Assembly: GCA_021838785.1 (NCBI GenBank) | Contig: JAKCCV010000002.1 | Coordinates: 1-64,000, forward strand | Length of the DNA: 64,000 bases | Direction of reading: 5' to 3' | Source: Acidobacteriota bacterium | GTDB taxonomy: Bacteria; Acidobacteriota; Terriglobia; UBA7540 | In this document: piece by piece, positions 19,889-58,889 of the stretch | How positions within the stretch are numbered: the first letter of the stretch is position 1 | How the letters are laid out: each line of letters opens with the position of its first letter | Made by a program: the position numbers and the translations under genes | The notes under the pieces: generated by a model | What the model was told of the DNA's origin: nothing | The model's input: the letters and a program-made list of their open reading frames with translations, nothing else | The model's database searches: none

Positions 19889-21381
19889 TCACAGCCCGCG
19901 CGATGGTAGCTGCACGAAGCCCGCGCCTCTCTCTTCCTGAAATTCATGCGGATCCACACCCATCTCGATGGCCACCTCGCGGAGCATGGGAGGGATGACG
20001 AACATCTCTTCGAAGCTCGCGAGCGCCGTGAGGTGGTAAATGTCCTCAACCTCATTCGGAGTCAAGTGTGCGTCCTCCAGAGCTTGGATCGCCTTTTCCA
20101 TCGGGATGTCGCCCACGGTCTCAGCGCGTTTGAACATGCGTCCCGCAAGCAGCTTTTTGTACACTGCGACGACCATCGCTTCGTCTCCTGCCGCAAAGAG
20201 GCTGGCCATGTATCGGATCGGCAGGCGAGCGCTCTCGAGCGAACTGAAGAAGTCCTTCTCCAATTCGTAGTGCCCCTGTTGGCTCAAAGTCGCAGTCACC
20301 GGCAATAAGGGCGGCACGTAGAAGAGCATGGGCAAGGTCCGCCACTCCGGATGGAGCGGCAGCGCCAGCTTCCATTGTTTTACATACCTATAAACGGGCG
20401 ACTTCTGCGCCGCCTCGATGACCTTCTTGTCCAAACCGAGGGCCATCGCTTGGTAAATGACTTCGGTGTCAAACGGGTCCAGAATAATCTCGCGCTGCGC
20501 TTCCACGAGCTCACTGTCTGGTTTCGAGGCGGTCTCCTCGATTCGCTCCGCGTCATAAAGCAGAACGCCGAGGTAGCGAATCTTGCCTACGCAGGAATGC
20601 ATGCAAGCTGGAGCCTGTCCGGTCTCAAGCCGCGGATAACGAGAATGCACTTTTCGGCTTTGCCCGCTTCCCAGTTGAAGTACACCTTCTTATACGGGCA
20701 ACCCGAGACGCACATCCGCCAGCCCTGGCATTTTTCCTGACTGACCAACACGATGCCGTCCTCACCGCGCTTGTAAATCGCACCGCTCGGGCAGGCGGCG
20801 ACGCAGCTCGGGTTAAGGCAGTGATTACAAATGCGCGGCAGATAGAAATAAACGAGTTGCTGAAGTTCGAAGAACCGCCGCCGCTCCTCTTCGTTCATCA
20901 CCTTTTGCAGATTGGGGTCGTTCGCGGCGTAAATCGGCGAGCCGCTCATGTCGTCATCCCAGTTGGGTCCGGCTTCGATTTCCATTTCTTCGCCGGTAAT
21001 CATGGAGATCGGACGGGCTACGGGCTGGTCATCGCTTGGCCTTGCATCAATCAATTCCTTGTAACGGTAGGTAAACGGCTCGTAGTAATCATCGAGAGTG
21101 GGCAAGCGCGGGTTGAAGCTGATATTCACAAGCTCCGTGGGACGGCTGCCCAGTTTGAGGCGGAGTTTTCCGTCTTCGAGCACCCAACCGCCGCAATATT
21201 GGTCCTGGTCTTCGTACAGGATCGGATATCCTGTGCCCGGCTTGGTTTCAACGTTGTTCCACCACATGTATTCCGTGCCGGGGCGGTCGGTCCAGAGGTT
21301 CTTGCACGCCAGGCTACACGTATGGCAGCCGATGCATTTGTCGAGGTGGAAAACCATCGAGACTTGGGCGCGGACATCCAT
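19889..21381 (-). pseudogene. narH: Nitrate reductase beta subunit NarH, one-base frameshift
   Basis: NarH carries the [4Fe-4S] and [3Fe-4S] wire between NarG and NarI. The first part (from 21381) has HLDKCIGCHTCSLACKNLW, then CNHCLNPSCVAACPSGAIYKR and CQGWRMCVSGCPYKKV. The second part, in another frame, starts with YPRLETGQAPACMHSCVGK and continues to a normal C-terminus, so together about 497 residues are present. The frames meet between 20640 and 20641. The DNA there reads TGC ATT CTC GT TAT CCG, whereas E. coli NarH has CILCYPRLETG; one missing T exactly explains the break and removes the cluster cysteine. GAGGAG lies about nine bases before the ATG at 21381. As written no active enzyme is possible. 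Since every other nar gene is intact, a base-calling error is the likelier explanation. Confidence 0.9.
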
Positions 21382-26978: not shown

Positions 26979-27167
26979 CTACGCGGCCTGCCGTTCGCGG
27001 TAGTACTTGGAGAGCTTGGTCCCCTGCTTGCGCACAGCCAGCATCTTTTGGAGCAAGTCTCCCTGCGCCTTGGCCGGTCGAGGCTCAATCCATTCCGAAT
27101 ACTGCCATCGCAGGCATGCTTTGCGCAGTGGTTCAGGCAAGACCGTCCTCTCACGGATTTTGTGCAT
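26979..27167 (-). CDS. Small basic protein, unknown (62 aa)
   Basis: Not recognised. A short, highly charged, soluble protein without Cys clusters or membrane segment, reading MHKIRERTVLPEPLRKACL at the start and ending in SKYYRERQAA. It overlaps the end of the hemerythrin gene by 17 bases and is preceded by GGAAG about eight bases before the ATG, which supports translational coupling. It fills an otherwise open gap in the nar-linked minus-strand run. It could be a regulator or accessory of hemerythrin, or spurious. Confidence 0.5.
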   Translation of the reverse strand: MHKIRERTVLPEPLRKACLRWQYSEWIEPRPAKAQGDLLQKMLAVRKQGTKLSKYYRERQAA

Positions 27168-27696
27168 TCAGTGCTTCCATCATGCTGCGAAGCCGTTCGT
27201 GCTTCCCCTCGCCAATCTTTTCGTCCTCCAACAGCTTGAACGCGCCTGCAATAGCAGCCTGTTCCTCCTGGCTGAGGACGCGATCGGCCATCTTGAACAG
27301 CATTTCTTCTTCCTTATAAAAATGGTCGTGCATGAGGTCCGAGTAATTCCACGCCGCCTGCATCCAGCGTTTCGCCGCGTCAGGCGTAAGGCCGTTGCCG
27401 GCTGCCGTGCTCATTTCCTCAATCAGGCCCCGCGCCCGGTCGTGCTCCATGAGCATCACGCCGAGCGGCCCGCCGTCCGCTGGAATGCCCTTCTTCTCAA
27501 GCAGCGGAAACAGGATCTCTTCCTCCTTGCTGTGATGGCATTGCTCAACGAAGAGGCAGATAAACTCCATCAGCTTGTCCACCTCTTCTTGCGACACCTC
27601 CTCGTCGCGGTTCATTTTGGCCGCAATGCGTTCGGCAACCTCAAGTGCGCCTTTAATGGTTTGGTGTTCCTGTCTCAATCGGTCCGTTGCGGATGG
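27151..27696 (-). CDS. Hemerythrin-domain protein
   Basis: A four-helix bundle di-iron protein of 181 residues. All expected ligand clusters are present: His in RQEHQTIKGAL, the pair and Glu in CHHSKEEEILFP, His in LMEHDRARGLI and the HxxxE of HDHFYKEEEMLF. Hemerythrin-like proteins bind oxygen or NO and protect or repair iron-sulfur clusters under nitrosative stress. AGGAGG lies eight bases before the ATG at 27696; an in-frame ATG at 27729 overlaps that site and is rejected. It heads the minus-strand nar run and is divergent from an NnrS-type gene, with two FNR/DNR-type boxes in the shared promoter, which points to an NO-stress role. Confidence 0.92.
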   Translation of the reverse strand, partial: PSATDRLRQEHQTIKGALEVAERIAAKMNRDEEVSQEEVDKLMEFICLFVEQCHHSKEEEILFPLLEKKGIPADGGPLGVMLMEHDRARGLIEEMSTAAGNGLTPDAAKRWMQAAWNYSDLMHDHFYKEEEMLFKMADRVLSQEEQAAIAGAFKLLEDEKIGEGKHERLRSMMEALNAQNP

Positions 27697-27756
27697 CATT
27701 GCTGTTTCCCTCCTGCTTTCTGAAGGCATCTTGGGCGCGCGCGGTTCATGCCGATA

Positions 27757-27788
27757 TGACTAAAGTCACAGGGGCGTGACAAAAGTCA
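27757..27788. promoter_or_regulatory. Twin TGAC-N4-GTCA boxes (CRP/FNR-superfamily, NnrR/DNR-like)
   Basis: TGACTAAAGTCA at 27757-27768 and TGACAAAAGTCA at 27777-27788, centres 20 bp apart, lie in the 236-bp spacer between the divergent hemerythrin and NnrS genes. NO-responsive NnrR/DNR regulators recognise TTGAC-N4-GTCAA-like sites; the outermost T and A are not kept here. A TAATCT at 27813-27818 would place a rightward start near 27825, with the right box at about -42, the class II activator position. The left box stands at a similar distance from a possible leftward start near 27721. Regulator identity is inferred. Confidence 0.7.
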
Positions 27789-27932
27789 TTGTGGCCGCTT
27801 GGCAGGCCATCCTAATCTGCTGACGTCGCGGGAAATCGTCGGCGTGAGCAGGACCACTGATGGCTGGTCAAGAAAAGCCCAACCCAAGAGGCGCGCGAAT
27901 GCGAGCGATCCTCAACTCGATAGGGAGCGAGC

Positions 27933-29486
27933 ATGACCAAGAAAATTGAACCATCCACCAGCGTCGCGGAGATTGTGCGACTGTGCCCGTCAGCGAGAAA
28001 TATCTTTGATCGCCACGGGCTGCATGGCTGCGGCGGCGAACACGGTCCGGCCGAGTCGCTGGAGTTTTTCGCTCGCGTCCATGAGGTAAATCTCGATGCA
28101 CTGCTTGAAGACTTGAATGCCGCGCTCAACCAATCTTCCCAACAACCTTACATCTATCACGAGACGCTCGCGGATTACATCTACCGCCGCTTCTTCAAGG
28201 CCGGCATCGCCATCGTGCTCAGCCTGGGCGGGATGTGGGGCGTCATTTCCCTTCTGCAGATTTCGCTCGGCAAGGAATTACTCCAACCGGCGCTCATGCC
28301 GGCCATTCACGCTCACGCCCACGCCATGATTTTCGGCTGGGTCGGATTGTTCGTGATGGGCTTTGCCTACCAGTCTTTCCCGGGATTCAAGAACACGACG
28401 CTGTGGCAGCCCGGATGGGCGAATTTCACGCTGTATCTGATGCTGAGCGGCATCCTGCTGCGCGCCATCGCCGATATCCTTCAGCACGGGGGTTGGGCGC
28501 TGAGCTTGGGCGGCATATCCGTCGCCTCGGAAGTGGCGGCTGTCGTTTTGTTCATGACGATTATCCTCAAAACGGCGCGGCAATCCATTGCTCCGCATAA
28601 TCCTTACGAAACCTTCATCATCGCGGCCCTTGCCTGGTTTTTGATTCAGGCGATCTTCGACGGCTTCTTCTTCTTTGCCGAAGCGACGGCGGCGAATCTT
28701 CAGCAGACCATCTTTCGCACGGCACTGCTGGATGCGCCGTTGCGCGACGTCCAGTTGTTCGGCTTTGCCGCTCTGATTACTGCAGGTGTCAGCCAGCGGT
28801 TTGTGCCGGTTGTCTATGGCTTAGGTAAGCCCCGACACGACCGCCAAAAGTTGATTTTTTGGCTGATGAACGGCAGCCTCGTGCTGGACGTTGCAAGCTA
28901 CTTGGCCTTGTTCCTCACGGGCAATGCCACATGGGGCATTGCGCTTGAGGTCGCTTATATTCTGATGGCGCTATGGGCGGTGTTGCTGGTGATTCAATTA
29001 CGGATCTTCACGCCCACCACGCAGCCGGACCGAAGCTGGAAATTCATTCGTGCTGCTTATGTGTGGCTGCTGATCGCCATGCTCATGCTGCCGTTTCTCA
29101 TACCTTACGGACTCTGGACTGGCCAAGGCTTCTCACATGCTTTCTGGGGAGCACATCTGCACGCTTTCGCGGTGGGCTTCATCAGCATGATGATTATCGG
29201 CGTCTCGTCCCGCGTCGTTCCCATTCTGGCGGGAGTGGATTCAAAGCGGCTGAGTTCGCTCTGGGGTCCGTTCCTTCTGCTGAACGTCGGCTGTGCAGCC
29301 CGCGTGCTGCTTCAAATTCTGACGGACTGGCGCCCCGGCCTGGCATATTCTCTGATTGGTGTTTCGGGGGTGTTGGAACTCGCCGCTCTCGCCTGGTGGG
29401 GCATCGGATTGTGGCGTGTCATGGATCTGTCGAAGACGCATCGGGCGGGCGTGCTCAGAGCGCCAGCACCCCTGGCCGCTCGCTAG
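27933..29486 (+). CDS. DUF1858-NnrS fusion protein
   Basis: A 517-residue membrane protein joining two domains. Residues 1-70 form a DUF1858-like domain (SVAEIVRLCPSARNIFDRHG, Cys18 and Cys33, then the typical SLEFFARVHEVNLDALLEDL). The rest is an NnrS-type 12-helix heme/copper membrane protein, with His-rich helix starts in AIHAHAHAMIFGWVG and GAHLHAFAVGFISMMIIG. NnrS proteins relieve NO stress in denitrifiers, acting in the inner membrane. GGGAG stands six bases before the ATG. It is divergent from the hemerythrin gene and preceded by the twin boxes, so NO or anoxia induction is likely. Ric/ScdA proteins pair a related Cys domain with hemerythrin; here hemerythrin is a separate neighbour and the small domain is attached to NnrS. 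Confidence 0.85.
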   Translation: MTKKIEPSTSVAEIVRLCPSARNIFDRHGLHGCGGEHGPAESLEFFARVHEVNLDALLEDLNAALNQSSQQPYIYHETLADYIYRRFFKAGIAIVLSLGGMWGVISLLQISLGKELLQPALMPAIHAHAHAMIFGWVGLFVMGFAYQSFPGFKNTTLWQPGWANFTLYLMLSGILLRAIADILQHGGWALSLGGISVASEVAAVVLFMTIILKTARQSIAPHNPYETFIIAALAWFLIQAIFDGFFFFAEATAANLQQTIFRTALLDAPLRDVQLFGFAALITAGVSQRFVPVVYGLGKPRHDRQKLIFWLMNGSLVLDVASYLALFLTGNATWGIALEVAYILMALWAVLLVIQLRIFTPTTQPDRSWKFIRAAYVWLLIAMLMLPFLIPYGLWTGQGFSHAFWGAHLHAFAVGFISMMIIGVSSRVVPILAGVDSKRLSSLWGPFLLLNVGCAARVLLQILTDWRPGLAYSLIGVSGVLELAALAWWGIGLWRVMDLSKTHRAGVLRAPAPLAAR

Positions 29487-29735
29487 TCCGCCCAGCCTCG
29501 AGTGGGAAAGCGCGACTCACAAGCCGGCCCAAGCGGCAGCGCATTGCGGTTCTTGAGGTCGCTCAGGCGTCGCCGAATATCCTGAAACACAGTTTCATCC
29601 TGATGGGGTAAAGGTCCAACTCCAGCCGGAAGATGCGCCCGGCAGCCGTTTTCCGGGGGTGATTTGCGGGTAATGCGGCAAGGGCATCGGCTTTCGGCGC
29701 TCTCCCAGGAGCTTTGCACGGTGAGAAGTGCCAAC

Positions 29736-31328
29736 ATGACGACGGAACTTCCGGAAGCCTGGAAAAACGCCTACGCGCGGGATCGTGTTATTGAAGCCGA
29801 TTATGCCGATCCGGCCCCTGAGCGTCAGGCGGCGCGAGCGCTGGCAGCGTTCATTGCGAGCGGGCTGGTGTTCCTTGTATTTCCCGGCACGGTCCTCGGC
29901 GTTTGGAATCTGGTAGAGATCGCATCCCACCGCTCAGCCACGGGCGCCAGCACGGCGTGGATTCAGGCTCACGGTCAAGCGCAGCTCTTAGGATGGGTGG
30001 GCAGTTTTATTCTGGGCATTTCACTCTACGCGCTGCCCAAATTTCGCGGCTGGACGCTGAAGAAATTCGGAGCCGTTTGGACAGTATGGGCGTTGTGGAC
30101 GGTGGGCATCGCTTGGCGATGGTGGGTTGGCGTTTGGTCCGATGGTTGGAGACTCGGTCTGGTCGCGTCGGCTCTCGTGGAGTTGGCGGCCTACGTTCTG
30201 GCGCAGCGAATTCTGCTGTTCCCCCCGGTTAAAGAGAAAAAGAAGCGTCGGCACCGTGTTCCGAGCGATTTGGGTTCCTGGCTTGGCATGGTGGGATTTG
30301 CCGGGCTTGGCTTGGCGTTAGCGCTCAACCTGGCAATTGCCATTTACGTCAGCGGGACTCAAAGCCTGCCGGTCTATCCCGCGAAACTTGATCGCTTGCT
30401 TCTGATGGCCGAGCTGTGGGGGTTTGTAATTCCGCTGGCGTGGGGATACAGCACGCGCTTTGTGACGATTTTCCTGGGCCTCGAGCCGCCTGATCATCGT
30501 GCCGCACGCTGGCTTTGTCCGGCGCTCGCCTTGACGGTCCTGAGCGCCTTCACGTTTCGGTTTTGGATAACCGACCTCCTGGCGCTCGTGACGACATGGA
30601 CGGCCGTGCCCGCTTTGCGGATATTTGAGCGTCCCGCGCGGCCGGCCAAGTTGCTCTATATTTATAAGGGCTATCCTTTATTCATCCGCATTGCGTACGT
30701 GTGGCTGGTGGTGGCGACGGCGCTCGGAGTCCTCGCGGACGCATATCCGCAAACGATAGGCTTGGGTGGCGCTTCGCGGCACGCGCTCACGGTGGGATTC
30801 ATTGCCACGCTGATTTTCGCGCTGGCGCCGCGCATGTTGCCGGCCTTCCTCGGCGGGCGCGAACTCTACAGCACGCGCCTGATGGCTGCGAGCCTTTGGC
30901 TGCTGACGGGCGGATGCCTGATGCGCGTGGCCACGGAAGCTTTTGCCTATTCCTCGCCTCCGGGCGCAGCCGTCTGGTCCATCCTGCCGATTTCCGCCTT
31001 CATCGAATTGAGCGCCGTGCTGGTTTTCGCCGCCAACCTGGCCCTCACGCTCCGGCAAGCGCCGCCGGCCTGGCTTGAGCCAGATTCGCTTAGCGCTGAA
31101 TTGCCGCTCTACTGGTTTGTGACGAGCTTTCCGCGCACGCGGGCTCTCTTGATTGACGCGGGATTGACCACATTGGCGCGGGTCAAAGATCCACCCCGTT
31201 CTTTGAGCCTGCGGGAGGCGGCCTCCGCCGAGAATCTGGAGGTTGAAAACGTGCTCCGCGTTCTCAACCAGTTCTTCAGCCGCCATCAGCCTCGCCTCCG
31301 AACCGAAAAGCCCGTCGCCGACGGCTGA
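29736..31328 (+). CDS. NnrS-family protein with C-terminal DUF1858-like domain
   Basis: A second NnrS-type membrane protein, 530 residues from the ATG at 29736 (GAGAAG about ten bases upstream; an in-frame ATG at 29664 would add a poorly conserved arm). Around twelve hydrophobic helices are visible. His-bearing elements correspond to those of the preceding gene: WIQAHGQAQLLGWVGSFILG and SRHALTVGFIATLIFALAPRMLPAF. A soluble tail (about 475-525: LLIDAGLTTLARVKDPP, SLREAASAENLEVENVLRVL) resembles DUF1858 but lacks its cysteines. It follows the DUF1858-NnrS gene by 249 bases on the same strand. The two look like diverged partners, possibly a heteromer or parallel systems for NO handling; this is inference. 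Confidence 0.82.
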   Translation: MTTELPEAWKNAYARDRVIEADYADPAPERQAARALAAFIASGLVFLVFPGTVLGVWNLVEIASHRSATGASTAWIQAHGQAQLLGWVGSFILGISLYALPKFRGWTLKKFGAVWTVWALWTVGIAWRWWVGVWSDGWRLGLVASALVELAAYVLAQRILLFPPVKEKKKRRHRVPSDLGSWLGMVGFAGLGLALALNLAIAIYVSGTQSLPVYPAKLDRLLLMAELWGFVIPLAWGYSTRFVTIFLGLEPPDHRAARWLCPALALTVLSAFTFRFWITDLLALVTTWTAVPALRIFERPARPAKLLYIYKGYPLFIRIAYVWLVVATALGVLADAYPQTIGLGGASRHALTVGFIATLIFALAPRMLPAFLGGRELYSTRLMAASLWLLTGGCLMRVATEAFAYSSPPGAAVWSILPISAFIELSAVLVFAANLALTLRQAPPAWLEPDSLSAELPLYWFVTSFPRTRALLIDAGLTTLARVKDPPRSLSLREAASAENLEVENVLRVLNQFFSRHQPRLRTEKPVADG

Positions 31329-31367: not shown

Positions 31368-31628
31368 ATGATCTCGACGCTTCCGGTGCGGCGCATGGAT
31401 GAGCCATCTTCAATTCCCGACAGCCTCGAATGGCTTCCCGACGCGGTTCTGATCCTCGGCGGTGAGGGCCAGATTCTTCTGGTGAACGCCGCCGCCGGGG
31501 ACTCGGGGAGCCGCTCGCTGCGTCCCTGGCGAGCCGCCTGTCAAGGCTCTTCAAGCTCCCGAGGTCTCATCCGCTGCCAAGAGGATCCGCTGTCCCCACA
31601 GAGCCCGCAACGCCGTTCCCGGCCCTGA
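31368..31628 (+). pseudogene. PAS-domain stub, truncated
   Basis: The first 35 or so residues from the ATG at 31395 (SLEWLPDAVLILGGEGQILL then VNAAA) are the unmistakable opening strands of a PAS sensor domain. After about 31497 the frame continues as low-complexity Ser/Arg/Pro sequence with no PAS core and stops at 31628. It looks like the 5' end of a PAS regulator or kinase cut off by rearrangement. A GATAAT -10-like hexamer stands directly before the ATG at 31368, so 31395 is the likelier start. The lost protein may have regulated the NnrS genes beside it (speculative). Confidence 0.6.
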
Positions 31629-31672: not shown

Positions 31673-34114
31673 ATGACCGAGCATGGGCAAGACGTCGAGG
31701 ACTTGGCTGCGGCGATTCGCCATCTGGCTGACACTGCCGAAAGCGAGATGGATCTGCAAGTCAAAGTTGAAAAGCTGCTCGATCCATTTCTCCCCAAAAT
31801 TCCCGGCGCCACGCTCGACCGTTACGGCCACGCCACCCAACTCGGCGGCATTCAGGACGCCCTGCACGGCAACGTCATCATTGAATACGAGCGCCCCGGA
31901 AAACTGGCGAAACCGGCGGGCCTCGGCGAATGCTTGCGCCAGCTTCGGCAATACCTTGCGGAAGAGGCGCAGCGCCACGGCCATCAGTCCACCGCCGCCC
32001 TCAAAAGAATGGTGGGCATCGGTCTGGACGGACGTCAGATCGTTTTTGTCCGTTACCGGGGCAAGGACGCCGCCCCATTCATTCCACCCAAGAAGCTCTC
32101 CCCTCAAATGGCTTTCTTTCCTGAATCCAGGACCCACGATTTCTACGTTGACGGCCCTCATCCCGTCACCGGGGAGAGCGTCGGAACCTTTCTCGGTTAT
32201 CTTCACTCGCTCGCTCGGCTGCCGCTCACGCCCGAGGCGCTCGCCGAAACGTTCGGTCCCAAGGCTGGCATCGCCCAGGCCGTCATCGGGACGCTTTACG
32301 AGAAGGTGCGCAAGGCCGGCAACCAGCGTGTCGAGACTTTCTTCGCCGAGTGGCACCGCATCTTCGGCATCGTTTACGGTCAGGACATTGGCAAGGCGGA
32401 AGCGGACGCCCGCGCCCTCGGCAAGCAATTCGGCGTGCCGACCGTTCCCAAGCTGAAGGAATTCCTCTTCTGCGTTCACACTTATTTCGCTCTGCTCATG
32501 AAGCTGCTGGCGGCGGAGGTGATGACCTTGCAACGCGGCGCCATGCTGCAGTCGTTTATAGCGCCGCTGGTCTCCGCCCCGCCCGAAGATTTTCGCAAGG
32601 CGCTGAAAGACCTCGAAGACGGCGGCCTGTTTGCGGGGCAAGGGATCAACAATTTCCTGGAAGGCGACTTCTTCTCGTGGTACTTGAGCGTATGGGATAA
32701 ATCAATGGCGGAAGAATTGCGCGCCATGCTCCGCGCACTCGCCCGCTTCGATCCCCGCACGCCCTATCTCGCGCCCGAGCAGAGCCGCGACTTGCTGAAA
32801 AAGCTCTATCAATATCTTGTCCCCAAAAAGCTGCGGCACGATTTGGGGGAATTCTACACCCCCGATTGGCTGGCGGAACACCTGCTCAATCAACTTGAGT
32901 ACACGGGCGACTTGGACAAGCGGCTGCTCGACCCCGCCTGCGGCTCCGGCACGTTTCTCGTTCTCGCCATCCGCCGAATGAAGGAATGGGCGCTGCAACA
33001 CGACCCGCCGATTGACGCCGAAACCGTCGCCAAGAAGATTCTCCAAAATCTCTGCGCGTTCGATTTGAATCCCATCGCGGTAATCGCCGCCCGCACGAAT
33101 TTTCTGCTGGCCATGGGCGAGCTCGTCCGCTACGTCCGCCCCATAGAAATCCCCGTCTATATGTGCGACTCGGTGCTGACGCCTTCTGAATACGCGGAAC
33201 TTTTCGGCAAGGGCTATCGAATTCCAACGGCCGCGGGCGAGTTTGAGATTCCGGGTGAAATCGTCACCTCCGGCCAGATGGAAAAGCTCGCCGCTTTGCT
33301 CGAACAATGCGCGCGCGGGGATTATTCGGTGCGGGAATTTCTGAACCGCGCCAAACGGGAACTCGCCGTCACCCACCATGCGACGTTCGAGGGACTGACG
33401 GCGCTTTTTGAGCACATCCACAAGCTCGAAAAGCAAAATCGCAACGGGATTTGGGCACGCTGGCTCAAAAACGCCTTCGCCCCGCTGTTCAAAGGCAAAT
33501 TCGATTACATCGCCGGCAACCCGCCCTGGATTAACTGGGAATCGCTGGCGAGCGAATATCGAAGCGCCACGGCCAAGCTGTGGCACAAGTACGGACTGTT
33601 TTCACTCAAGGGACACGCGGCTCGCCTCGGGGGGGGCAAAAAAGATTTTGCCATGCTGTTTGCTTATGCGGCCATGGACAACTACTTGGATAAGGGCGGA
33701 AAGCTCTGCGCCCCCTCTTCGTGGCGGCCCACGATTAGTTTACAACTTCGATTAAGGCCAGCGTATGAGGTATCAACGGCAGGGTCAGTTGAAGATGCTC
33801 TGCCGCAGGTGGCACAATCTTCGGCGGCGGAAGTTGGCCGGCATCTTGCAAAATCCTCCGCTGTGCCCGCAGCAAGAGTATCGCCCGACCGGAACCGAAC
33901 ATCTGCTCCCCAAAGTAGGGTTCATGTTTCGTCCCGATGCCATCGGAGGAGCCAGTCTGCCGTGGGCCGTCGGGCATGGTACGGCGAGTTCGGGCCAGTG
34001 TCGCGCGGGCCTGGCTGCCACGCTTGTGGGAACGGCGCTCAAGTTGGTTCGGTTCGGCTTGATCGGCCTGCCCTCGGGCCACACACCGAAGCCGTGAGGA
34101 AAAGAGGCCGTTGA
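31673..34114 (+). pseudogene. Type IIG-like restriction-methylase (N6-adenine), truncated after the NPPW motif
   Basis: A DNA adenine methylase of the large restriction-modification kind. Residues 1-300 hold an uncharacterised N-terminal part that could be the nuclease/helical region. The methylase core starts near residue 395 (KKLRHDLGEFYTPDWLAEHLL), with SAM motif I DPACGSGTF, a CAFDLNPIAVIAARTNFLLA strand and catalytic motif IV AGNPPWINW. After KDFAMLFAYAAMDNYLDKGG (about 33708) the family normally continues with the remaining motifs and a target-recognition domain; instead the frame runs on as composition unlike it to 34114. So about the last third of the gene is missing, with the junction near 33710-33720. 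It starts near-leaderless behind a TATAAT. It cannot be expected to bind a target site, so it is probably a dead system or one under decay. Confidence 0.85.
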
Positions 34115-55581: not shown

Positions 55582-56829
55582 TCACTTGATCCACCACAAC
55601 CACACCGAACCCATCACCAGCGTCAACACGGTGACCGGCAATCCAACTCGAAAATAATCGCCAAAGCTAATCTCCTCGACGTCGCGCGACCGCTCCACCA
55701 CAATAATGTTCGCCACCGAGCCAGTGATGGTCAGATTGCCGGCCAAGGTGCTGGCCATCGCCAGCACCAGCCATCCCAGGTGGGGGTTGGCGAATTGTGG
55801 CACCATGGATTTGAGCAGCATCACCGCCGGCACGTTGCTGACGATATTCGAGAGCACCGCCGTCACCACGGTAAAGACTCCGGCGCTCTGAATGCCGAGC
55901 GGTCTTGCAAAGTGGAGGAGGTCGTCGGTAATTCCGGCATTCTGCGCGCCTTGAATAATGACGAAGAGCCCGGCAAAGAATACGAGCAATCCCCAATCCA
56001 CTTCTTCATAGACCTGTCGCGGCTCGCGCGTCCGGGTAATCAGCATCATGGCCGCGCCGAAGGCCGCCATCATCGCCGGCGGAACGCCCGCCAAAAAACC
56101 GACGAGCACCATCAAAATGACGATGCCGGGTTTAATTAGCCGAACCGGCTCCCTGGCTTCGACGCTGCCCGCCTCAACCTTCGGCGAATGAGTCGGCTCG
56201 GTTGTTGGAAAAGCTTTTGACAAAATTAGCCAATCCAGAAACAGCCCCGCCAGCGCCACCGGCCCCAGGTGCGCGAGAAAAACCAGATAGCCGATGCCCG
56301 AGTACGAACCAATTAGCATGTTCTGCGGGTTGCCGGTGATTGTCGCCACGCTGCCGATGTTCGAGGCCGTCGCCACGGCCAGCAGGTAGGGCAAAGGTTT
56401 GACGCCCATGCGGCGCGTCGCCGTGAGCACAAACGGAACCATCGCCAGGCAGATGATGTCATTCACGAAAAAGGCCGAAAGCACGCCGCTTAAAAAGATC
56501 ACCGTGGGCAGCAAATGCCGCGGCCGCAGGTGCTCCACCACCCAGCGCGTGATGCCGTCGAAAAATCCCGCCAGGTGCAGCGTGGCGACGATCAGCATCA
56601 TGGAGAACAGCAGCACGATGGTCTTGAAGTCAATCGCGCTCAGCGCCGCGTCCGGCCGCACGATGCCGAACGCCACCATCAGCACCGCGCCAATGATGGC
56701 CGCCCCCGGCCGGTCAATTTTCATTCCGGGGAATTTGCCGACGGCAAAAACAAAATAGCAGGTGAGAAAGATGGAGAATGCCGCAAAGAGTTTCAACTCG
56801 CCGAGCGTGAAAACAGGAAGGTGGCTCAT
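55582..56829 (-). CDS. SLC13/ArsB-like anion permease
   Basis: An inner-membrane ion-transporter-superfamily protein of 415 residues with about eleven hydrophobic helices. Landmarks are ATLHLAGFFDGITRWV, SGVLSAFFVNDIICLAMVPF and the repeat-hairpin motifs ATASNIGSVATITGNPQN and ASTLAGNLTITGSVANIIV, which belong to the SLC13/ArsB/NhaD fold. Substrates in this group are arsenite, sodium, sulfate or dicarboxylates; none can be chosen. No ars or sulfate gene lies nearby. Its first 80 codons and upstream 4 bases recur almost exactly at 58649-58893. Confidence 0.88.
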   Translation of the reverse strand: MSHLPVFTLGELKLFAAFSIFLTCYFVFAVGKFPGMKIDRPGAAIIGAVLMVAFGIVRPDAALSAIDFKTIVLLFSMMLIVATLHLAGFFDGITRWVVEHLRPRHLLPTVIFLSGVLSAFFVNDIICLAMVPFVLTATRRMGVKPLPYLLAVATASNIGSVATITGNPQNMLIGSYSGIGYLVFLAHLGPVALAGLFLDWLILSKAFPTTEPTHSPKVEAGSVEAREPVRLIKPGIVILMVLVGFLAGVPPAMMAAFGAAMMLITRTREPRQVYEEVDWGLLVFFAGLFVIIQGAQNAGITDDLLHFARPLGIQSAGVFTVVTAVLSNIVSNVPAVMLLKSMVPQFANPHLGWLVLAMASTLAGNLTITGSVANIIVVERSRDVEEISFGDYFRVGLPVTVLTLVMGSVWLWWIK

Positions 56830-57769: not shown

Positions 57770-58522
57770 ATGTCTCGGGTTGGCTCTTCCCGCGGAGCGG
57801 CATCTGCACTCGCACCGCTGTTATGGACGGCGCTTGTAGCCCCGCTCGGCAGCGCCCAAGGCCCGCCGCTCACGACAAGGCTCGCGCCGCTTCCGGCTGG
57901 CCGGGTGCAACTGACCATCACCAACAACTCCCAGCAACCCATCACCGCCTTCGCCATTTACACCGTGTTCGGGCCCCAGGCCCGTAGCATCCGTATCGTG
58001 GACTCCCTAATCAACCGCGGGTTTGACCGGGAAGTTATGCCGGGCGACACCCAGCGGTTCGTGTTCGGCGGCGTGGTTCGTCTCGGAGTTGCCGTGCCTC
58101 CTCAAAAGATCACACTCGAGGCCGCCGTCTTTGCGGACGGCTCGACCTTCGGCGACCCACAATGGATACAGGCGATCACCCGCAACAGGAAAACTGTATA
58201 CCAGAACTATGCCACGGCCTTGCGCGAACTCCAGTCGGCCCGCGCTTCCAAGCAAACGCGCGGGCAGATCGTCGGGCGCTTCACAGCTCTGAAGGAGGAG
58301 GCCCTCCACTGCGGCGGGTCGGGCTGCGACGGGGCCATCGGGCACTACCTAACCGGTAACGCCGCAATCCCTTTCCAGTACGTGATAGCCAATCTTGCAT
58401 ACCCGAACATGGGCGGCGGCCGGCGCGCTCCTTTGAATACAATCACGCAGATACTCATCTCCCAAATCCAGGTGGTTATGCTCAGGATGCGCCAAGCCAG
58501 GCCTCCTGTCACAACCCCATAG
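57770..58522 (+). CDS. Exported protein of unknown function
   Basis: Not recognised. 250 residues with an export signal (LAPLLWTALVAPLGSAQG). The first half looks like a beta-sandwich (GRVQLTITNNSQQPITAFAI, then a region ending AAVFADGSTFGDP), as in proteins that carry an Ig-like domain. The second half is helical and basic (ALRELQSARASKQTRGQIVG, ALKEEALHCGGSGCDGAIGH). GGAGGTGA stands five bases before the ATG. It lies 30 bases after the alternative stop of the Cys-rich gene, so the two are likely co-transcribed and may act together outside the cell. Confidence 0.7.
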   Translation: MSRVGSSRGAASALAPLLWTALVAPLGSAQGPPLTTRLAPLPAGRVQLTITNNSQQPITAFAIYTVFGPQARSIRIVDSLINRGFDREVMPGDTQRFVFGGVVRLGVAVPPQKITLEAAVFADGSTFGDPQWIQAITRNRKTVYQNYATALRELQSARASKQTRGQIVGRFTALKEEALHCGGSGCDGAIGHYLTGNAAIPFQYVIANLAYPNMGGGRRAPLNTITQILISQIQVVMLRMRQARPPVTTP

Positions 58523-58889
58523 GGCGCCGCGGGACGAGCCGGGCCATAGTCCAGCACAGGCCGGCGCCTAACGCGACAAACTGTCCCGCGACGGCGACAG
58601 GCGCCGGGTGATAAAAGAACACAAGGTCGCTGATGCCCGAGTACGGCCCGATCAGCATCATGGAGAACAGCAACACGATGGTCTTGAAGTCAATCGCGCT
58701 CAGCGCCGCGTCCGGCCGCACGATGCCGAACGCCACCATCAGCACCGCGCCAATGATGGCCGCCCCCGGCCGGTCAATTTTCATTCCGGGAAATTTGCCG
58801 ACGGCAAAAACAAAATAGCAGGTGAGAAAGATGGAGAATGCCGCAAAGAGTTTCAACTCGCCGAGCGTGAAAACAGGAAGGTGGCTCAT
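58509..58889 (-). pseudogene. Truncated mosaic copy of the SLC13-type permease
   Basis: The first 80 codons match the intact permease at 55582-56829 almost exactly. Then 93 codons are missing in frame (279 bases) and the reading resumes with IGPYSGISDLVFFYHPAPVA, a diverged version of the intact protein's IGSYSGIGYLVFLAHLGPVA. It ends after 126 residues and lacks most helices and both ion-binding hairpins, so it cannot work as a carrier. A near-identical 5' part joined to a strongly diverged 3' part suggests gene conversion or recombination into an older paralogue. Confidence 0.85.

What the first reader, a model, noticed from the sequence alone, without database searches (positions are those of the whole stretch)
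27933..31328. Two NnrS proteins with DUF1858-like domains at opposite ends
The first has the domain at the N-terminus with two cysteines; the second has it at the C-terminus without cysteines. Both lie behind an NO-type promoter beside hemerythrin. Ric/ScdA proteins join a related Cys domain to hemerythrin, so this locus splits and reshuffles the same parts. A heteromeric NO-sensing or iron-sulfur repair complex is possible and, as far as I know, not described.
Basis: partly seen in the sequence, partly recalled or inferred. Interest (0 to 1): 0.65.

Follow-up and report, generated by a model that had tools for sequence, protein, structure and literature searches.

The report
Two NO-defence proteins with opposite-end domains
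A bacterium carries two membrane proteins of the nitric-oxide-defence family NnrS, one with a small cysteine-bearing domain at its front end and one with a cysteine-free cousin of that domain at its back end; the pair is real and recurs in its bacterial family, but relatives often carry both domains on one protein, so it is a new domain arrangement of a known kind rather than a new system.

Summary
NnrS1 (27933-29486) has an N-terminal DUF1858-type domain. NnrS2 (better start 29736, end 31328) has a Cys-less C-terminal domain that a single-sequence HMM search misses, but its orthologues show it to be DUF1858 (8 of 13 match Pfam; profile comparison far above shuffles; both PDB hits are DUF1858 structures). 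Only one of NnrS1's two cysteines (C33, CGG) is invariant. In the order, 13 of 40 genomes have both proteins, 6 only the first, 3 only the second; 9 of the 13 have them on one contig. Both usually lie behind an HcpR-like palindrome RTGAC-N4-GTCAY. Elsewhere in the phylum one protein carries Cys-DUF1858, NnrS and Cys-less DUF1858 together. The two come from two old NnrS subfamilies and the genome has an intact Ric, so 'Ric split and reshuffled' is not supported; a heteromer is untested. Predicted structures add that both cores have the heme-copper oxidase/NO-reductase fold, keep two universal histidines placed as for the low-spin heme, and lack those of the catalytic centre. Most likely: an NO/nitrite-induced membrane heme protein whose cytosolic DUF1858 domain relays redox or docks partners.

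The parts
27933..29486 (+). nnrS1: NnrS protein of 517 aa with N-terminal Cys DUF1858-type domain
   Evidence: Pfam NnrS 49.3 bits; orthologues 60-87% identical in the family
27945..28106 (+). N-terminal DUF1858/TIGR03980-type domain of NnrS1 (C18, invariant C33 in CGG)
29736..31328 (+). nnrS2: NnrS protein of 530 aa (554 aa if TTG 29664 is used) with C-terminal Cys-less DUF1858 domain
   Evidence: Pfam NnrS 36.7 bits; start by comparison with orthologues
31095..31286 (+). C-terminal Cys-less DUF1858 domain of NnrS2
   Evidence: best-predicted part of the model, pLDDT 73-86 over most of residues 451-510
27756..27769 (.). palindrome ATGACTAAAGTCAC, HcpR-like CRP/FNR box
   Evidence: conserved upstream of orthologues
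27776..27789 (.). palindrome GTGACAAAAGTCAT, second box
27151..27729 (-). stand-alone hemerythrin HHE protein, divergent from nnrS1, shares the boxes
   Evidence: Pfam Hemerythrin E 2e-21; same place in G417, G419, G425, G429, and nearby in G424

Best explanation
The locus encodes an inducible NO/nitrite-protection set beside a nitrate reductase operon. NnrS1 and NnrS2 are two membrane proteins with the heme-copper oxidase (NO reductase/cbb3) fold. They keep the two histidines in the positions of the low-spin heme ligands (helices 2 and 10) and lack the catalytic-centre histidines, so they would hold a heme and pass electrons or bind NO, not reduce NO as a true NO reductase does. Both termini face the cytoplasm, so each carries its DUF1858 domain on the inner face. 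The cysteine (CGG) domain of NnrS1 most likely works as a thiol/electron relay or NO gate, as the related ScdA_N domain does in YtfE/Ric. The Cys-less domain of NnrS2 most likely docks a partner. A CRP/FNR-type regulator acting at the RTGAC-N4-GTCAY boxes switches hemerythrin and the nnrS1-nnrS2 unit on together. Shown here: domain identities, pairing, boxes, paralogue history. Predicted here: fold and topology. Inferred: heme binding, relay and docking roles, regulation, protection of iron and Fe-S from NO.
For: NnrS and DUF1858 identity. Boxes upstream of 15 of 17 nnrS1 and 10 of 15 nnrS2 genes against 3.6% of random stretches; the core also precedes Ric, hemerythrin and qNOR genes. Core matches the published HcpR motif (PMC1274295). 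nar genes next door. Models: NnrS1 Z 29.7 to cbb3 and 29.2 to cNOR, Foldseek E 3.2e-5; NnrS2 Z 22.2 to cNOR. Only two histidines universal across five NnrS groups. Positive charges on the inner loops 11 to 3 and 21 to 5. ScdA_N cysteines feed electrons to the di-iron site of YtfE (PMC9052748). NnrS reported to protect the iron pool from dinitrosyl complexes (cited in PMC11526790).
Against: Models rest on 4-5 sequences with pLDDT 52-61. Profile-profile search does not confirm homology to heme-copper oxidases (at most 12%). No heme, NO or redox data. C18 is not conserved, so a two-cysteine disulfide cannot be general. The regulator is unidentified (one search gives candidates only). In the window NnrS2 has no box of its own and would need read-through from nnrS1.
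Confidence: 0.5

Rival explanations
1. NnrS1 and NnrS2 form an obligate heteromer, with or without the hemerythrin, that together restores the two-ended DUF1858-NnrS-DUF1858 chain of other Acidobacteriota.
For: Co-occurrence and frequent linkage in the family; one-chain relatives carry both ends; shared box type.
Against: Six genomes have only NnrS1 and three only NnrS2; gene order and strand vary; in four genomes they lie on different contigs; the paralogues split deeply; G265 and G148 have one each. The one-chain protein corresponds to NnrS1's clade only.
Confidence: 0.2
2. The NnrS proteins are NO sensors: the DUF1858 end passes a signal from the membrane heme to a cytosolic regulator of nitrate/NO genes.
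For: DrpB, which has a DUF1858 domain, modulates nar expression in Thermus (PMC6282519). CRP/FNR, sigma-54 and DUF2249 genes lie near relatives.
Against: No output domain; NnrS elsewhere is reported as protective; no intact regulator gene beside the pair in the window.
Confidence: 0.15
3. The locus is a Ric whose two domains were separated, the NnrS1 N-domain and the stand-alone hemerythrin working together as a split Fe-S repair protein.
For: Related Cys domain and hemerythrin lie side by side and share the boxes.
Against: Intact Ric in the same genome and in several genomes that hold the pair. The N-domain fits DUF1858/TIGR03980 better than ScdA_N and has one Cys in CGG, not the vicinal pair. 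A separate CCGG-type small protein is the closer ScdA_N match near nnrS1 in some relatives.
Confidence: 0.07
4. The NnrS2 tail is a vestigial or merely structural extension with no function of its own.
For: No cysteines; tail absent from the sister clade.
Against: 19 invariant columns in 13 orthologues and mean column identity 65%, in genomes of several genera.
Confidence: 0.08

Closest known systems
NnrS (PF05940), e.g. of Rhodobacter and Vibrio
   Same: Over the family cut-off; NO/denitrification context; the two universal histidines shared with classical NnrS of the phylum
   Different: Divergent (49 and 37 bits against 300 for classical members); DUF1858 end domains
One-chain DUF1858-NnrS-DUF1858 proteins of other Acidobacteriota (found here, e.g. 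G377, G137)
   Same: Same two end domains around an NnrS core; NnrS1 is in their clade
   Different: One polypeptide; often an extra ScdA_N-type N-terminal copy
Ric / YtfE / ScdA (ScdA_N + hemerythrin)
   Same: Related small domain; hemerythrin next door; NO regulon company
   Different: Domains not fused; CGG in place of the vicinal cysteine pair; intact Ric present separately
cNOR / cbb3 oxidase subunit I (heme-copper oxidases)
   Same: Predicted 12-helix fold; His on helices 2 and 10
   Different: No catalytic-centre histidines; no significant sequence homology
Thermus DrpB and Bradyrhizobium bsl7085 (DUF1858 in nitrate/denitrification loci)
   Same: DUF1858 protein in a nitrate or denitrification regulon (PMC6282519; PMC6710368)
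   Different: Soluble or stand-alone, not fused to NnrS

Membership tests
NnrS (PF05940) | whole-protein score over the curated cut-off | tested here: met
   49.3 and 36.5 bits, cut-off 28
NnrS (PF05940) | contains heme and copper | not testable with these tools
   needs protein; two universal His found
DUF1858 (PF08984), NnrS1 N-domain | family score | tested here: inconclusive
   30.2 bits for the domain alone, cut-off 32.2; E 5e-7, full-length match 1-59 of 59; TIGR03980 38.9 against 44.95; one-chain relatives pass
DUF1858 (PF08984), NnrS2 C-domain | family score of the single sequence | tested here: not met
   no hit
DUF1858 (PF08984), NnrS2 C-domain | homology of the orthologous family to DUF1858 | tested here: met
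   8 of 13 members match, best 3.4e-5; hhalign P 2e-7 over shuffles; PDB hits 2k53, 2fi0
Ric / YtfE (TIGR03652) | ScdA_N and hemerythrin in one chain | tested here: not met
   NnrS1 16.2 and hemerythrin 35.6 bits, cut-off 204.7
Ric / YtfE (TIGR03652) | vicinal cysteine pair | tested here: not met
   single Cys in CGG
Heme-copper oxidase / NO reductase | 12-helix subunit I fold | tested here: met
   Z 29.7 and 22.2 on low-confidence models
Heme-copper oxidase / NO reductase | histidines of the binuclear catalytic centre | tested here: not met
   no conserved His on helices 6-7; only H128 and H410 universal
Heme-copper oxidase / NO reductase | sequence homology (COX1 PF00115 cut-off 34.8) | tested here: not met
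   19.6 and 16.1 bits; hhalign at most 12%
HcpR-type CRP/FNR box | TTGAC-N4-GTCAA palindrome upstream of NO genes | tested here: inconclusive
   core TGAC-N4-GTCA met and conserved, outer TT/AA replaced by RT/AY; regulator not identified

The most novel reading that the evidence does not exclude
NnrS is a heme-copper-oxidase-fold protein stripped of its catalytic metal site, and in Acidobacteriota it has been wired to cytosolic DUF1858/ScdA_N thiol domains: a membrane-bound NO-handling device in which a degenerate NO-reductase core exchanges electrons or NO with a cysteine relay, with NnrS1 and NnrS2 as two specialised forms.
Probability: 0.3. Interest if true: 0.75.

Novelty: new variant of a known kind. 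Interest (0 to 1): 0.5.

Why it matters
What NnrS does at the molecular level is still unclear. A predicted NO-reductase-like fold with only the two putative low-spin-heme histidines left gives a testable reason why it binds heme and touches NO but need not reduce it. Repeated fusion to DUF1858/ScdA_N domains, at either or both ends, points to a cytosolic thiol partner in its mechanism and gives the uncharacterised DUF1858 domain a concrete context.

Tried and rejected
Recent duplication and split of one gene: rejected, as NnrS1 and NnrS2 lie in two separately supported clades. Ric split into parts: rejected as a replacement, because an intact Ric exists. NnrS2 C-domain as a chance resemblance: rejected. 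Proof of heme-copper oxidase homology by profile-profile search: failed, at most 12% probability; Pfam COX1 and NCBIfam ccoN hits are local and partly match helix 2 of NnrS to helix 10 of the oxidases, so the ligand assignment rests on the models. Canonical NO reductase in this genome: the only two COX1-type genes found (frames of 547 and 624 aa) are not of the 765-790 aa qNOR type seen in relatives. Plasmids: no match for NnrS1 or for a one-chain relative. The structural match lists are filled by the membrane core, so they did not test the DUF1858 ends of NnrS2. Occurrence outside the Acidobacteriota was not searched properly: the one genome-contig scan, with a close-relative query, found two MAGs.

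Full report
Observation. Both are over the NnrS cut-off (49.3 and 36.5 bits against 28) and are the only NnrS proteins in this 3.4-Mb genome, whose nearest named relatives are Acidobacteria MAGs. NnrS1 begins with a domain that fits DUF1858 (E 5e-7) and the redox-disulfide model TIGR03980 (E 6.5e-10) better than ScdA_N (E 9e-5). The NnrS2 tail has no hit alone, but its orthologues do: 8 of 13 match DUF1858, best 3.4e-5. The tail profile aligns with undoubted DUF1858 tails of relatives (70 bits against a 32.2 cut-off for the first member) and with the N-domains at P about 2e-7, far above 60 shuffles per target. Its only two hits among 177,635 PDB sequences, weak on their own (E 0.015 and 0.058), are both DUF1858-family structures. 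Details to correct: only C33 of the CGG motif is invariant, and NnrS2 probably starts at 29736.

Family picture. Searches of 396 genomes of the phylum and 40 of the order show three further forms. (a) One-chain proteins: Cys-DUF1858, often preceded by a CCGG-type ScdA_N/DUF1858 copy, then NnrS, then Cys-less DUF1858 (G377, G383, G323, G389, G086, G137, G153, G208, G357, G041, G253; three of them scanned, the tails over the cut-off). (b) NnrS1 orthologues without the tail. (c) NnrS2-like proteins without the tail, mostly in a sister family. A tree of 62 cores puts NnrS1 with the one-chain form and NnrS2 with the tail-less form, split at SH-aLRT 100; NnrS2 orthologues are one clade (quick method, long branches noted). 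So the pair is not one gene split in two; it is two old paralogues, each with a DUF1858 end.

Pairing. In the order, 13 genomes have both, 6 only NnrS1 (G418, G397, G400, G403, G412, G416), 3 only NnrS2 (G420; G406, with a NnrS1 fragment; G407, itself a fragment) and 18 neither (Fisher p 9e-4, kinship not corrected, many genomes incomplete). In 9 of the 13 they share a contig within about 4 kb, in tandem (G000, G417, G419), convergent (G424, G430, G432, G433, G413) or divergent (G428) order; in G414, G425, G429 and G434 they are on different contigs. Outside the family G265 has NnrS1 alone and G148 NnrS2 alone. Pairing is thus common in one family but not strict.

Control. Between hemerythrin and nnrS1 lie ATGACTAAAGTCAC and GTGACAAAAGTCAT. 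RTGAC-N4-GTCAY lies within 400 bp upstream of 15 of 17 nnrS1 and 10 of 15 nnrS2 genes, against 3.6% of random stretches in the same loci. The nnrS2 genes without a box include the three tandem ones downstream of nnrS1. In relatives the core palindrome also precedes Ric, hemerythrin, radical-SAM and qNOR genes. The core TGAC-N4-GTCA is that of the HcpR motif TTGACnnnnGTCAA (PMC1274295). The regulator is unknown; candidates are the CRP/FNR homologues at C29:96859 and C27:6506.

Neighbourhood. nar genes, a cytochrome c, an SLAC1/TDT-type channel protein and a stand-alone hemerythrin lie upstream. In relatives Ric, CRP/FNR, DUF2249, an FmdE-zinc-finger protein and qNOR recur. The genome has an intact Ric elsewhere, so NnrS1 plus hemerythrin does not stand in for it.

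Structure. AlphaFold2 models from shallow alignments (pLDDT 61 for NnrS1, 52 for NnrS2) match heme-copper oxidase subunit I above all else: NnrS1 to cbb3 oxidase Z 29.7 and cNOR Z 29.2, Foldseek E 3.2e-5; NnrS2 to cNOR Z 22.2. The tool's own notes put noise for helical models at about 14. Over five NnrS groups only two histidines are universal (H128, H410 in NnrS1; H79, H349 in NnrS2), on helices 2 and 10 of the models, where heme-copper oxidases hold the low-spin heme (established knowledge). Conserved histidines of the catalytic centre are absent. Profile comparison does not confirm homology, so the fold is a prediction and the ligand assignment an inference. K/R counts of the loops put both ends in the cytoplasm, so both DUF1858 domains would be cytosolic.

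Mechanism. Shown: domains, pairing, boxes, history. Predicted: fold, topology. Inferred: one heme per core; the CGG domain as a thiol relay or NO gate, by analogy with ScdA_N of YtfE, whose cysteines feed electrons to the di-iron site (PMC9052748); the Cys-less domain as a docking part; overall protection of iron and Fe-S from NO, as reported for NnrS (cited in PMC11526790). DUF1858 in other nitrate or denitrification loci (Thermus DrpB, PMC6282519; Bradyrhizobium bsl7085, PMC6710368) fits.

Novelty. I found no description of DUF1858-NnrS fusions in the library: the one paper holding both words concerns a stand-alone DUF1858 protein. The titles and abstracts of the eight papers holding 'NnrS' and 'heme-copper' do not suggest the oxidase fold for NnrS (they were not all read). 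The library is partial, so this is not proof of novelty. I rate it a new variant of a known kind.

Noticed in passing
window 31368-31628: Short frame with a 71-bp, 84% match to the start of a PAS-GAF-sigma54 activator (755 aa) that is intact downstream of nnrS2 in L082:8761-11028; in the window only a decayed fragment is left.
   Followed up: partly
window 31673-34114: Eco57I/MmeI-like restriction-modification gene, 93% identical over 2110 bp to the 1124-aa frame at L083:2194-5568, but it loses the match after about 33709 and ends early at 813 aa.
   Followed up: partly
window 29583-29831 and L200:7373-7739 (G000:C38): The 5' end and upstream flank of nnrS2 have an 84% duplicate elsewhere in the genome, close to the intact Ric, a mobA-like gene and the FmdE-zinc-finger gene that stands between nnrS1 and nnrS2 in G417; this looks like a past rearrangement.
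   Followed up: partly
L124:5395-5868, L129:5150-5365, L128:4577-4897, L115 (contig 20178-20459), L149 around 595-813: Small stand-alone ScdA_N/DUF1858-type proteins (mostly CCGG) directly before nnrS1 in several relatives, broken by a stop in L149; the same domain is fused in the one-chain proteins.
   Followed up: partly
L116:8543-8950, L119:763-1179, L132:7725-8135 and others: Conserved hydrophobic protein of about 135 aa next to nnrS1 or nnrS2 in eight neighbourhoods, with no Pfam or NCBIfam hit; absent from the window.
   Followed up: no
L118:10859-13153, L152:7067-9388, L135:2711-5080: qNOR-type NO reductases next to NnrS genes in relatives, two of them with the same palindrome upstream, while no qNOR-type gene was found in the window's own genome.
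   Followed up: partly
window 55582-56829 and 58509-58889: Two minus-strand frames begin with the same 60 residues (MSHLPVFTLGELKLFAAFSIFLTCYFVF...), which looks like a local duplication with one truncated copy.
   Followed up: no
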